64,000 nt of DNA from Bradyrhizobium zhanjiangense. Its GTDB lineage: Bacteria; Pseudomonadota; Alphaproteobacteria; Rhizobiales; Xanthobacteraceae. Under the pieces are notes generated by a model. It searched no databases and had not been told where the DNA came from. It saw nothing but the letters and a program-made list of their open reading frames with translations. Each line of letters opens with the position of its first letter. Position 1 is the first letter of the stretch. Shown here piece after piece: positions 4,528 through 7,817 of the stretch. A program made the position numbers and the translations under genes. The stretch spans positions 1,385,001 through 1,449,000 of the forward strand of contig NZ_CP022221.1 of NCBI RefSeq assembly GCF_004114935.1, in the 5' to 3' direction.

Positions 4528-4547
4528 GAATACGGAATTCCGTATTC
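4528..4547. promoter_or_regulatory. perfect 20-bp palindromic operator for the GntR regulator
   Basis: GAATACGGAATTCCGTATTC is a perfect inverted repeat lying 28 bp before the GTG of the GntR gene, immediately after the predicted -10 element. FCD-type GntR repressors bind short AT-rich palindromes of this kind, so this is very likely the autoregulatory operator. Binding here would cover the transcription start. Confidence 0.75.
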
Positions 4548-4701: not shown

Positions 4702-5559
4702 CTAGCGCTCGAGCACCTCCACATCGAGCGTCGCAATTCGCTCGGCATCGGCCGTAGCATCGATCCCGGCGATCCGGCCGTCCCTGAAGCTGACGCGCAG
4801 CGCGATGCGCAGCTGGCCGCCGAGAACGACGGCGACGCCCATTTCGCCATCGACCAGCGCGGCCCGTGCCGCCTGAGCGCGGCCCTTGAAGGTCTGCGCG
4901 ACCGCGTCCGCGCCGCGGATCTCGGGCAGCGAGCCGAGCCGCACCGCGGCCTGGTCGGCGCGGAATACGACGTCGGGATCGAGCACCGCCAGCAGGCCCT
5001 CGAAATCGCCCTCGCGCGAAGCTTTGAGGAAGGCATCGACGACTCCGCGCTGGCGCGACAGATCCGTCTCCGGCACCGGCGCGCCCTGCACGCGCCGCCG
5101 CGCACGACTCGCCAGCTGCCGCGAGGCGTCAACGGAGCGGCCGACGATCGGCGCGATCTCCTCGAAGGGAACGGCGAACATGTCGTGCAGGACGAAGGCA
5201 AGCCGCTCCGCCGGCTGCAATGTCTCCAGCACGACCAGCAGTGCCGCGCCGACGGAATCGGCCATCTCCGCCTCGCGCTCCCGCGTCTCGTCGACCGGCT
5301 CGGGCACGTGCGGACCCATCGGCTCTTCCTTGCGCGACTTCCGTGCGCGCAGCATGTCGAGGCAGATTCGCGCCACCACAGTGGTCAGCCAGCCGCGCAG
5401 GTTCGCCACATCGGACATGTCGTAGCGGCTGACCCGCAGCCAGGCCTCCTGCACGGCATCCTCGACCTCAGCGCGGGAGCCCAGCATCCGGTAGGCGACC
5501 GCGCGCAGATGGTCCCGGCTGGCCTCGAACTGGCGGGTGAGAAGATTTTCTTCAGTCAT
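4702..5559 (-). CDS. sigJ: ECF sigma factor with C-terminal SnoaL-like domain (ECF41/SigJ type)
   Basis: A 285-residue extracytoplasmic-function sigma factor. Region 2 is at about residues 10-75 (AYRMLGSRAEVEDAVQEAWLR), region 4 at about 105-160 (LQPAERLAFVLHDMFAVPFEEIA), and a 110-residue SnoaL/NTF2-like extension completes it. ECF41-type factors lack a classical anti-sigma protein and are modulated by this extension. The conserved DGGGK motif of typical ECF41 extensions is not visible; the equivalent place reads RADQAAVRLG, so a related subgroup is possible. It is divergent from an AhpD/CMD gene, the hallmark partner of this family. GAGGG precedes the ATG. Confidence 0.9.
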   Translation of the reverse strand: MTEENLLTRQFEASRDHLRAVAYRMLGSRAEVEDAVQEAWLRVSRYDMSDVANLRGWLTTVVARICLDMLRARKSRKEEPMGPHVPEPVDETREREAEMADSVGAALLVVLETLQPAERLAFVLHDMFAVPFEEIAPIVGRSVDASRQLASRARRRVQGAPVPETDLSRQRGVVDAFLKASREGDFEGLLAVLDPDVVFRADQAAVRLGSLPEIRGADAVAQTFKGRAQAARAALVDGEMGVAVVLGGQLRIALRVSFRDGRIAGIDATADAERIATLDVEVLER

Positions 5560-5560
5560 C

Positions 5561-5587
5561 GGTCACATTCCCTCATCGCGATCCGTC
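5561..5587 (+). promoter_or_regulatory. ECF41-type promoter for the CMD gene
   Basis: GGTCACA (5561-5567), exactly 16 nt, then CGTC (5584-5587). The published ECF41 target, as I recall it, is TGTCACA-N16-CGTC, so 10 of 11 positions agree. The start would be near 5594, about 60 nt before the CMD start codon. Confidence 0.75.
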
Positions 5588-5595
5588 ATGCCCAT

Positions 5596-5622
5596 GACGA
5601 AGCCAATCCGGTCGATGTGACC
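5596..5622 (-). promoter_or_regulatory. ECF41-type promoter for the sigma factor gene itself
   Basis: Read on the minus strand: GGTCACA (5622-5616), exactly 16 nt, CGTC (5599-5596). This is the same sequence as the plus-strand promoter, in mirror image. It would give the sigma gene a leader of about 30 nt and positive autoregulation. Confidence 0.75.
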
Positions 5623-5655
5623 GGAACCTTCGAAATTCTCGAACGGAGACGCAAA

Positions 5656-6114
5656 ATGATGCACGCACGTATGAACCATCCGGTCATGGTCCTGCCGGAG
5701 GCGATGAATGTCCTTCAGTCCCTCGGCAATTTGACCAAACAGGTCCTGCCGGAAAAGCTCCTGGAACTGGTGCACCTGCGCGCCAGCCAGATCAATGGCT
5801 GCAGCGTCTGCGTCGACATGCATCCGAAGGTCGCGCGCAAGCTCGGTGAGACCGATGAACGCCTGTTCGCCGTGTCCGCCTGGCGCGAGGCGCCCTATTT
5901 CACCGAAGCCGAACGCGCGGCGCTGGCGCTGACCGAGGCGGTCACGCGTCTTGCCGATCGCGAGGATCCCGTGCCGGATGCGATCTGGAACGCGGCCGCC
6001 AAGCATTTTGACGAGCGCGAGCTCGCCACGCTGATCCTCTCGATCGCAACGATCAACGTCTGGAACCGGCTGAACGCGACGATCAAGATGCCGGTCGGCG
6101 TTTGGAAGGTGTGA
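5656..6114 (+). CDS. carboxymuconolactone decarboxylase / AhpD-like protein, ECF41 target
   Basis: A 152-residue CMD-domain protein with the AhpD-type redox motif CSVCVDMH (CxxCxxxH, about residues 49-56). This suggests a peroxidase or disulfide reductase rather than a true decarboxylase. It begins at MMHARMNHP, 10 nt after a GGAG ribosome site. A much longer open frame extends upstream but only overlaps the sigma gene in antisense. In the ECF41 family the sigma gene is typically paired with a CMD, oxidoreductase or epimerase gene, which together with the promoter match makes this the predicted target. Confidence 0.9.
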   Translation: MMHARMNHPVMVLPEAMNVLQSLGNLTKQVLPEKLLELVHLRASQINGCSVCVDMHPKVARKLGETDERLFAVSAWREAPYFTEAERAALALTEAVTRLADREDPVPDAIWNAAAKHFDERELATLILSIATINVWNRLNATIKMPVGVWKV

Positions 6115-6182: not shown

Positions 6183-6995
6183 CTACTCCGCCAAGAACCT
6201 GTTCACTGCCTCGCCGAACTCCAGCGGCGCCTGTTCGAACATCCAGTGGCCGGCGTTCGGGATCACCGCTGTCTTGCTGCCTTCGATGTGTTCGGCCAGC
6301 ACGCGCCACATCACCGACAGGCTTCCCGTCGTCGTGCCGCCGCCGATCAGCAGCGTCGGCGTCCTGATCGCCTGCGCATCAGCGAGTGTGTAGGGCCTGC
6401 GCTGCTCGTTGATCTGGCCGAGGAAGGTCAGTGCGTTGTCGCGGAGTTGCTGCTTGGCCGCCGCCGGCACGCGGCGCCAGGAGCCGGCGCCCTCGATGCC
6501 TTCGTAAAAATTCTGCAGCGCGCCCTCGATGTCGCCGGCGCGGATCATCTCGACCGATCGCGCGGTGCGTGCGGCGAGCGGCGGATGCGTCGGTGTGCCT
6601 GTGGGAACCGGCAAGCTGGCATCGAGATCGCCGCCCGGTTCGGCCAGCACCAGTTTTCGCAACAGATCCGGTCGGGCCTGCGCCACGCGGAAGGCGATGT
6701 GGCCGCCGCGCGAATGTCCCATCAGATCGACCGGTCCGGGCTGGACGTGCTCGATGAAGGCGATCGTATCAGCGACATGCTGGGCCATCTTGTAGTCGTC
6801 GCCGACGGCATCCCAATGCTCCGGAAAGAAGCGCCGCAGGCTGACCGAGATCACCCGATGGTTCTTCGACAGCGGGCCGAGCACCGAATACCAGGTGCGG
6901 AAATCCCCGAGCGTGCCGTGCACGCAGACCAGCGGCGGGCCGTCTCCGACTTCGAGATAGGCCATGTCGTAACTGTTGACGCGAAATGTCTGCAT
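6183..6995 (-). CDS. alpha/beta hydrolase fold protein (second of tandem pair)
   Basis: A 270-residue hydrolase with the oxyanion-hole HG (VCVHGTLGD), nucleophile elbow GHSRGG (about residue 95) and catalytic histidine in PNAGHWMFEQAP. The acid is probably an aspartate in the loop before the cap. It is about as long as, and clearly paralogous to, the hydrolase just upstream. Only 3 nt separate that gene's stop from this ATG, so they are co-transcribed. The substrate is unknown; esters and lactones are typical for the family. Confidence 0.85.
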   Translation of the reverse strand: MQTFRVNSYDMAYLEVGDGPPLVCVHGTLGDFRTWYSVLGPLSKNHRVISVSLRRFFPEHWDAVGDDYKMAQHVADTIAFIEHVQPGPVDLMGHSRGGHIAFRVAQARPDLLRKLVLAEPGGDLDASLPVPTGTPTHPPLAARTARSVEMIRAGDIEGALQNFYEGIEGAGSWRRVPAAAKQQLRDNALTFLGQINEQRRPYTLADAQAIRTPTLLIGGGTTTGSLSVMWRVLAEHIEGSKTAVIPNAGHWMFEQAPLEFGEAVNRFLAE

Positions 6996-6998
6996 GGG

Positions 6999-7817
6999 TC
7001 AGCTCGCCAGAAAATCCAGCACCACTTCGGAGTATTTTTGCGGTGCCTGCTCGAACATCGGGTGCGTCGCGTTCGGGATGACCGCCGTCTTTGAATAAGG
7101 CACATGCGCCGCGAGCGCGTGCAGCACCTTCGGCAGCAGGCCCTTGGTCCGCGCGCCCAGGATGAACAGCGTCGGCATTTTGATGGACTCCGCGTCCGCC
7201 TTCGAGAACGGCGGGCGATTGTCGCGGACCTGGCCGATCAGCGTCATCGCGTTGTCGCGCAAATTCTGCTTCACCATCGCCGGCAGTCGCGGCCAGGTGC
7301 CGGGGCCCTCCAGCGTGTCGACGAAGACGGCAAGGCCGCCGTCGACGTCGCCGGCTGCGATCTTCTCGGCCGAGGCCGAGAACCGCGCCAGCAGCGGCGA
7401 GGGGCCGCCGACATGATCGGGATCGAGGCTTGCATCGAGCTCGCCGCCGGGCTCGGCCAGGATCAGCCGCCGGAGCAGGTCCGGCCGCGCCTGCGCCACG
7501 CGGAAGCAGATGTGCCCGCCGCGGGAATGTCCCATCAGGTCGACCGGCCCGAGGTCGAGCTTCTCGATGAAGGCGATGACGTCGTCGACATGCTGGGCAA
7601 TCGAATAGGTGTCACCGAGGCCGTCCCATTGCGCCGGGAAGAAGTGCCTCAAGCTGACAGCGATCACCCGGTGTCGCTGCGTCAGCGGTCCGAGCACGCA
7701 ACCCCAGATGCGGAAGTCCGAGAGCGAGCCGTGCACGCAGACCAGCGGCGGGCCGCCTTTGTCCTCGCCCACGTCGAGATAGGGCATGTCGTATCCGTTG
7801 ACGTGGAGGCTTTGCAT
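6999..7817 (-). CDS. alpha/beta hydrolase fold protein (first of tandem pair)
   Basis: A 272-residue paralogue of the next gene downstream, sharing the N-terminus (MQSLHVNGYDMPYLDVG), VCVHGSLSDFR oxyanion region, GHSRGG nucleophile elbow and NATHPMFEQAP histidine motif. A recent tandem duplication is the simplest explanation. The catalytic set looks complete in both, so both should be active. The substrate is unknown. The ATG lies 137 bp from the divergent methyltransferase gene, and that gap should hold both promoters. Confidence 0.85.
   Translation of the reverse strand: MQSLHVNGYDMPYLDVGEDKGGPPLVCVHGSLSDFRIWGCVLGPLTQRHRVIAVSLRHFFPAQWDGLGDTYSIAQHVDDVIAFIEKLDLGPVDLMGHSRGGHICFRVAQARPDLLRRLILAEPGGELDASLDPDHVGGPSPLLARFSASAEKIAAGDVDGGLAVFVDTLEGPGTWPRLPAMVKQNLRDNAMTLIGQVRDNRPPFSKADAESIKMPTLFILGARTKGLLPKVLHALAAHVPYSKTAVIPNATHPMFEQAPQKYSEVVLDFLAS

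What the first reader, a model, noticed from the sequence alone, without database searches (positions are those of the whole stretch)
5561..5622. Two identical ECF41-type promoters in mirror image between the sigma gene and its CMD partner
GGTCACA-N16-CGTC is present on both strands (5561-5587 and 5622-5596) with exactly the same spacer length, and the two -10 elements form the near-palindrome CGTCATGC/CCATGACG. Each transcript starts inside or next to the other promoter, so one polymerase would exclude the other. This predicts mutually exclusive firing and positive autoregulation of a sigma factor without a classical anti-sigma protein. The plus-strand -35 element also lies between the ribosome site and ATG of the sigma gene. 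The two motifs are directly visible; the consensus TGTCACA-N16-CGTC is recalled from work on ECF41 factors.
Basis: partly seen in the sequence, partly recalled or inferred. Interest (0 to 1): 0.75.

Follow-up and report, generated by a model that had tools for sequence, protein, structure and literature searches.

The report
Interlocked two-way sigma-factor promoter
A 62-base stretch between a sigma factor gene and its neighbour carries two facing copies of the same promoter, and the same near bp-precise arrangement recurs beside related sigma genes in several bacterial phyla, which suggests one DNA switch that makes the regulator and its target in opposite directions, one at a time.

Summary
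In detail: GGTCACA-N16-CGTC lies at 5561-5587 (+) and 5622-5596 (-), facing, with 8 bp between the -10 elements. It is conserved: 99 of 99 Bradyrhizobium ortholog loci examined and 15 of 16 Rhizobiaceae-sample loci have both motifs and a gap of exactly 8. Protein-found loci in the Actinomycetota, Chloroflexota and Acidobacteriota samples are mirrored in 34 of 78, with gap 8-11 in 32 of 34. Published start-site data put +1 at the ninth base after CGTC, so at gap 8 each -10 is predicted to be the other transcript's +1 to +4, and both promoters melt the same DNA. Best reading: one bidirectional promoter, read in either direction by its own sigma factor. That both motifs occur at divergent ECF41 loci was already reported; the fixed interlock was not found in the papers searched. 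The sigma lacks ECF41 signature motifs. No transcription data exist here.

The parts
5561..5567 (+). -35 element GGTCACA of the CMD-directed promoter; also lies between the sigma gene's ribosome site and its ATG
   Evidence: GTCAC and the facing layout in 99/99 loci, with first and last base varying in a few
5584..5587 (+). -10 element CGTC of the CMD-directed promoter; its complement is the predicted +1 to +4 of the sigma transcript
   Evidence: the +1 position is inferred from published S. meliloti data
5588..5595 (.). 8-bp gap between the two opposed -10 elements
   Evidence: 8 in 99/99 Bradyrhizobium loci, 15/16 Rhizobiaceae-sample loci, 106/119 in the genome scan
5596..5599 (-). -10 element CGTC of the sigma-directed promoter (reads GACG on +); predicted +1 to +4 of the CMD transcript
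5616..5622 (-). -35 element GGTCACA of the sigma-directed promoter (TGTCACA in the second Bradyrhizobium subgroup)
5585..5598 (.). predicted common melted region (-11 to +3) of both promoters
   Evidence: arithmetic; bubble limits recalled
4702..5559 (-). ECF sigma factor gene, 285 aa, with a SnoaL_2-like C-terminal extension; lacks the ECF41 NPDKL and DGGG motifs
   Evidence: (closest solved structure SigJ, 5xe7, E 2.5e-44); NCBIfam SigJ model matched below its cut-off (240.9 against 271)
5656..6114 (+). carboxymuconolactone decarboxylase / AhpD-like gene, 152 aa, CxxC (CSVC) present
   Evidence: CSVC read from the translation printed
5570..5574 (-). likely ribosome site (GAGGG) of the sigma gene, inside the CMD promoter's spacer
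   Evidence: read; inference

Best explanation
The 62 bp at 5561-5622 is a single bidirectional promoter read by the neighbouring sigma factor's own RNA polymerase holoenzyme. It consists of two complete ECF41-type promoters facing each other and interlocked at their -10 elements. The polymerase binds in one of two orientations, set by which -35 its sigma region 4 holds. Rightward it makes CMD mRNA (predicted start G at 5596); leftward it makes sigma mRNA (predicted start G at 5587). Each -10 (CGTC) is the complement of the other transcript's +1 to +4, and both orientations melt the same ~14 bp (5585-5598), so only one polymerase can sit there at a time. Transcripts diverge without overlap. 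The design gives positive autoregulation, a set ratio of regulator to target, and, at high activity, a brake because the target promoter competes with the sigma's own. Shown by sequence: motifs, spacers, gap, conservation. Inferred: start sites, recognition by this sigma, mutual exclusion, ratio and brake.
For: Both arms, both 16-nt spacers and the 8-bp gap in 99/99 Bradyrhizobium loci, with 76 different 62-bp cores. Gap 8 in 106/119 stretches when 0-30 was allowed; 104 of the 106 adjoin a related sigma gene. Published start sites: the S. meliloti ECF41-type motif lies 9 nt before the start, a G. In 33 promoter-like sites at classic ECF41 loci base 8 after CGTC is a pyrimidine in 26 and base 9 a purine in 29, an initiator at the same place. 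A test of the interlock: base 1 after CGTC, which pairs with the other transcript's -1, is a purine on both arms in 43 of 43 gap-8 representatives against 18 of 33 classic sites (Fisher 4e-7 per arm). In the protein-found set outside Alphaproteobacteria it is 28 of 28 arms at gap 8 but 16 of 26 at gap 9. Arms carry the same -10 variant in 25 of 34 mirrored loci, as expected if one sigma reads both. Strong symmetry is confined to the promoter elements. In 23 of 104 loci the core lies an estimated 12-443 nt from the sigma start and the gap is still 8. Competition for one bidirectional site and lower noise were shown for E. coli promoters (PMC12825309, abstract and discussion).
Against: No start sites, binding or expression data for any mirrored locus were available here. 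The gap is not universally 8: among 34 mirrored protein-found loci outside Alphaproteobacteria it is 8 in 14, 9 in 13, 11 in 3, 10 in 2, 4 in 1 and 16 in 1, so exact coincidence of -10 and +1 is not obligatory; and at gap 11 the base-1 purine also holds (6 of 6 arms; gap 10: 1 of 4). 44 of 78 such loci are not mirrored (one, L397, has no upstream sequence). Of 37 further sigma paralogs in genomes picked by the scan, not themselves picked, 7 are mirrored (gap 8 in 5, 9 in 2). Eleven Bradyrhizobium paralogs of 38-55% identity show none. In 9 of 34 the two -10s differ in their first base. The E. coli work found no competition at basal activity.
Confidence: 0.72

Rival explanations
1. Two independent autoregulatory promoters that merely ended up close together; the fixed gap reflects common descent of a cassette or pinned leader lengths, not any interplay.
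For: Each 27-bp promoter is itself length-constrained, so only 8 of 62 bp are free. The sigma-side -35 lies an estimated 0-3 nt from the sigma start in 66 of 104 loci. Cassette transfer is plausible: a Rhizobium etli plasmid carries the module, and 194 plasmid records hold a related sigma gene.
Against: 23 of 104 gap-8 loci have the core displaced an estimated 12-443 nt from the sigma start. Intergenic length varies from 91 to 141 bp in Bradyrhizobium while the gap stays 8. Free positions of 43 representatives, chosen to differ, average 36% identity, yet the gap holds. The base-1 purine constraint holds at gap 8 and relaxes at gap 9, though not at gap 11. The four divergent classic ECF41 loci seen use back-to-back promoters.
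Confidence: 0.18
2. The 62-bp dyad is mainly an operator for a dimeric regulator that represses or activates both genes.
For: Two-fold symmetry at -35 and -10 elements; the 16-bp inner sequence is a perfect inverted repeat in the window.
Against: Strong symmetry is confined to the known promoter elements; most spacer positions are near expectation and inner bases 29-31 at or below it. Gaps of 8, 9 and 11 bp put the halves in different phase. The half-site alone stands upstream of single ECF41 target genes. The neighbourhoods were not searched for another regulator gene.
Confidence: 0.05
3. Only the CMD-directed promoter works; the sigma-directed copy is a vestige or is used by another factor.
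For: In the studied ECF41 systems the partner gene is the main detected target (PMC3426412, section 25). 4 of 48 Actinomycetota and 1 of 3 Acidobacteriota sample loci keep only the partner-directed motif.
Against: The sigma-directed motif is as conserved as the other. More protein-found loci keep only the sigma-directed motif (8 Actinomycetota, 6 Chloroflexota, 1 Acidobacteriota), so that direction looks selected by itself.
Confidence: 0.05

Closest known systems
ECF41 promoters at divergent ECF/COE loci (Wecke et al. 2012, PMC3426412; abstract, sections 20, 24 and 25 and found passages read)
   Same: Same -35/-10/spacer; same gene pair (SnoaL-tailed ECF and CMD). Table 4 already counts 55 divergent loci with the motif before the ECF gene in 36 and before the COE gene in 41, and the text says that often both genes carry it.
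   Different: The sections read do not mention facing promoters or a fixed distance; 'overlap' occurs once in the main text, about genes. Its supplement was not readable. The four divergent classic ECF41 loci seen here are back-to-back.
Bidirectional promoters of the Grainger laboratory (Warman et al. 2021, recalled and cited in PMC12825309; of the 2026 paper the abstract, found passages and discussion were read)
   Same: One short DNA site that RNA polymerase can engage in two orientations, with divergent starts a few bp apart (18 bp commonest, 10 and 23 also common).
   Different: There a -10 is shared through its own symmetry. Here two complete ECF promoters, both with -35 elements, are interlocked, starts are predicted 9 bp apart, the presumed reader is the product of one of the two genes, and the layout recurs across phyla.
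Mycobacterium tuberculosis SigJ (ECF41; PDB 5xe7)
   Same: Closest solved structure to the window's sigma, E 2.5e-44; SnoaL_2 tail.
   Different: The window's sigma lacks the ECF41 NPDKL and DGGG motifs and scores below the NCBIfam SigJ cut-off.

Membership tests
ECF41-type promoter | -35 TGTCACA, spacer 16 +/- 1, -10 CGTC (Wecke 2012) | tested here: met
   Met by both arms except the first base (G for T) in the window; TGTCACA on the sigma-directed arm of the second Bradyrhizobium subgroup
ECF41-type promoter | start site about 9 nt after CGTC, purine | tested here: inconclusive
   Sequence compatible (G at 5596 and 5587); no transcript data for this locus
ECF41 sigma factor | sigma2-sigma4 plus SnoaL_2-like C-terminal extension | tested here: met
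   SnoaL_2 at 24.7 bits, below the 27 cut-off; aligned with SigJ to residue 265
ECF41 sigma factor | signature motifs: GPWLPEP-type linker and NPDKL (named in PMC7730460, passages) and DGGGK (recalled) | tested here: not met
   Window: GPHVPEP, no DGGG, no NPDK. Mirrored-locus rows 0/213 for NPDK and DGGG, 38/213 for GP..PEP; 28 classic relatives 23, 27 and 21. After removing near-copies 0/99 against 23/24 for both. Not filed as ECF41; other SnoaL groups (ECF56, 205, 294, 295) are named in PMC8999054 (passages) but could not be tested
ECF41 locus | neighbouring COE gene, no anti-sigma gene | tested here: inconclusive
   CMD with CxxC directly divergent. The wider surroundings were not searched for an anti-sigma gene
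bidirectional promoter | two opposed promoters whose polymerase sites overlap so that one binding event excludes the other | tested here: inconclusive
   Geometry met (62 bp in all); occupancy not measured
bidirectional promoter | divergent starts mapped on both strands | not testable with these tools
   No RNA data held

The most novel reading that the evidence does not exclude
An interlocked promoter: the -10 element of each direction is the initiator (+1 to +4) of the other, both directions use one and the same melted bubble, and a sigma factor thereby writes its own mRNA and its target's from one site, with direction chosen at random per binding event. This would be a bp-locked ratio device and built-in brake on positive feedback, kept by selection in at least four phyla and with exchangeable partner genes.
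Probability: 0.45. Interest if true: 0.75.

Novelty: new variant of a known kind. Interest (0 to 1): 0.62.

Why it matters
ECF sigma factors without an anti-sigma protein need some other check on positive feedback. If the promoter itself supplies it, by making target and regulator compete for one site, that is a simple cis-encoded control. It would also be a bidirectional promoter whose geometry looks selected across phyla. It makes the open question of whether bacterial bidirectional promoters are adaptive directly testable with a 62-bp part and one protein.

Tried and rejected
Single-motif search for further targets in the window's genome: 37 hits against 39 for the control, so no regulon claim. 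A strong T/G asymmetry of the first -35 base between the two directions was suspected; among 43 representatives it is mild (G 0.47/T 0.40 partner-directed, G 0.23/T 0.60 sigma-directed) and was dropped. The first impression that the gap is always 8 was dropped after protein-based sampling. The column-shuffle control is uninformative (the mean cannot change) and is not used. EcfQ of B. japonicum was considered as a possible ortholog and dropped: a section heading puts it in class 33 (PMC3420878, abstract, outline and found passages). A hairpin in the CMD leader (5608-5624) was seen by eye and dropped because position 52, T in the window, is C in 95% of subgroup A. The FastTree has 63 of 151 inner branches under 80 support; it is used only to say that the mirrored label is clustered (19 changes against a shuffled mean of 45), not for its history.

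Limits of the samples: 99 of about 130 strong ortholog rows were fetched (31 not). In one search one Actinomycetota locus (L416) had no sigma hit and was dropped, and L397 has no upstream sequence but is counted as not mirrored. Of the rows without a locus 20 were fetched; of the rows without a locus none. Where a locus had two pairs the gap nearest 8 was taken (L395, L396). Distances to sigma starts are extrapolated from alignment to the window's protein. The 213 mirrored rows hold repeats of the same loci (181 distinct proteins); one of 29 classic loci fell out there for a short alignment. Group names of the samples follow the title of the locus used as centre.

Full report
What is there. 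A 285-aa ECF sigma gene (5559-4702, minus) and a 152-aa CMD/AhpD-like gene (5656-6114, plus) diverge from a 96-bp gap. In it, GGTCACA-N16-CGTC runs right from 5561 and left from 5622, with 8 bp (5588-5595) between the -10 elements. The facing pair occurs once in the genome, whereas the single motif is at background (37 against 39).

Conservation near the window. Of about 130 strong ortholog rows in 265 genus genomes I examined 99 loci. All 99 have a divergent CMD gene, both motifs, both 16-nt spacers and the 8-bp gap, although the estimated ATG-to-ATG distance varies from 91 to 141 bp and there are 76 different cores. Eleven further fetched loci around sigma paralogs (38-55% identity) have no mirrored pair; two of them keep a sigma-directed motif near the start.

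Conservation far from the window. The gap is 8 in 106, 9 in 5, 11 in 3, and 10, 5, 21, 23, 24 once each. The 80 listed titles include Streptomyces, Actinoplanes, Kribbella, Rhizobium, Caulobacter, Terriglobus, Ktedonobacter and a Myxococcales assembly, all with gap 8. In 104 of the 106 gap-8 stretches a sigma gene related to the window's starts next to the core. CMD is the divergent partner in 68 of 104. Ten of the other 36 partners, picked by me for a clear open frame, are NmrA/NAD-binding (3), glyoxalase (3), MFS, ABC transporter, TrmO and PNPOx proteins. So partners change while the core stays.

Unbiased sampling. The scan requires CGTC on both arms, so I also sampled by protein. Rhizobiaceae sample: 15 of 16 mirrored, all gap 8 (the sixteenth is a 38% relative without motifs nearby). 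Actinomycetota 17 of 48, Chloroflexota 16 of 27, Acidobacteriota 1 of 3. In these 34 the gap is 8 (14), 9 (13), 11 (3), 10 (2), 4 (1), 16 (1), out of a permitted -10 to 100, and the spacers are 16/16 in 32. Of 37 sigma paralogs in scan-picked genomes that were not themselves picked, 7 are mirrored, gap 8 in 5 and 9 in 2. Hence exact 8 is the rule in the alphaproteobacterial samples and commonest for CGTC arms, 8-11 is the wider rule, and many relatives are not mirrored: they have only the sigma-directed motif, only the other, none, or both in a non-interlocked arrangement.

Control loci. Twenty-nine ECF41-like loci from other Alphaproteobacteria (33-48% identity) and one S. meliloti plasmid locus mostly carry the motif singly; four divergent ones (L246, L251, L256, L259) have it back-to-back, -35 elements nearest each other. 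Of 33 promoter-like sites there, GACG follows at +1 to +4 in one. A facing GACG is therefore not part of an ordinary ECF41 promoter.

Where transcripts start. One S. meliloti study says that the motif lies 9 nt upstream of the start of an ECF41-type operon (PMC3616915, passages). A second prints the promoter, TGTCACA-N16-CGTC-N8-G, ending at what I take to be the start, since its lower-case starts are last letters and boldface is lost (PMC6180224, section 6 with Table 1; counted). Wecke et al. mapped a G start in two further species. In my 33 classic sites base 8 is a pyrimidine in 26 and base 9 a purine in 29, the usual -1/+1 pattern at the same distance. With gap 8, base 9 is the first G of the opposing GACG. 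Each -10 is then the other's +1 to +4, and the -11 to +3 regions of both promoters are the same 14 bp, 5585-5598 (bubble limits recalled). This makes a prediction: the base after each CGTC must pair with the other transcript's -1 pyrimidine and so be a purine. It is a purine on both arms in 43 of 43 divergent representatives, against 18 of 33 classic sites. In the protein-found set it is 28 of 28 arms at gap 8, 16 of 26 at gap 9, 1 of 4 at gap 10 and 6 of 6 at gap 11. The gap-11 result does not follow from the model, and the loci are not fully independent (L386, L390 and L391 share the gap sequence).

How it most likely works. The cognate sigma-polymerase binds this site in one of two orientations and makes either sigma or CMD mRNA. 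This gives positive autoregulation and co-induction of the target, with competition when activity is high. All of this is inference from sequence. For bidirectional promoters in E. coli, competition appears only above an activity threshold and can lower noise (PMC12825309, abstract, passages and discussion). In the window the sigma mRNA would have a 28-nt leader and the CMD mRNA a 60-nt leader, and the sigma gene's leader and the CMD promoter's -35 and spacer share the same bases.

Family. The promoter is ECF41-type. The sigma protein is an SnoaL-tailed relative of SigJ but lacks NPDKL and DGGG, as do all 213 mirrored-locus rows examined. I therefore do not file it as ECF41; its group number in the newer classification is undetermined.

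What is already in print. Wecke et al. reported that divergent ECF/COE loci often carry the motif before both genes. I found no report of the facing, interlocked layout or its fixed distance in the listings of searches or in the parts of papers read. These cover open-licence PMC text only, and supplements were not readable.

Noticed in passing
window 4529-4546: Perfect 18-bp palindrome AATACGGAATTCCGTATT just upstream of a GntR-like gene (4500-3823, minus); probable autoregulatory operator (family by eye from the translation).
   Followed up: partly
window 6183-6995 and 6999-7817 (minus): Tandem pair of alpha/beta-hydrolase-like genes, 60% identical, next to the CMD gene; family name by eye.
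   Followed up: partly
window 5568-5557 (minus): The sigma leader reads AUGUGACCG-AUG: a start-stop AUG-UGA directly before the true start, a by-product of the -35 motif followed by T (T at that base in 70% of 43 representatives).
   Followed up: no
L292, L296, L307, L386, L390, L391: Mirrored loci whose two -10 elements are both TGTC with the gap still 8: paired change of both arms, as if the sigma's -10 preference shifted.
   Followed up: partly
L068 and others of the Bradyrhizobium subgroup with TGTCACA on the sigma-directed arm, position 57 after the sigma start: A third motif-like site TGTGACA-N15-17-CGTC towards CMD is present in most loci of this subgroup; possible second CMD promoter.
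   Followed up: no
L332, L407, L410: Some Actinomycetota-sample relatives have the two promoters back-to-back with about 8-9 bp between the -35 elements instead of facing: an alternative compact layout.
   Followed up: no
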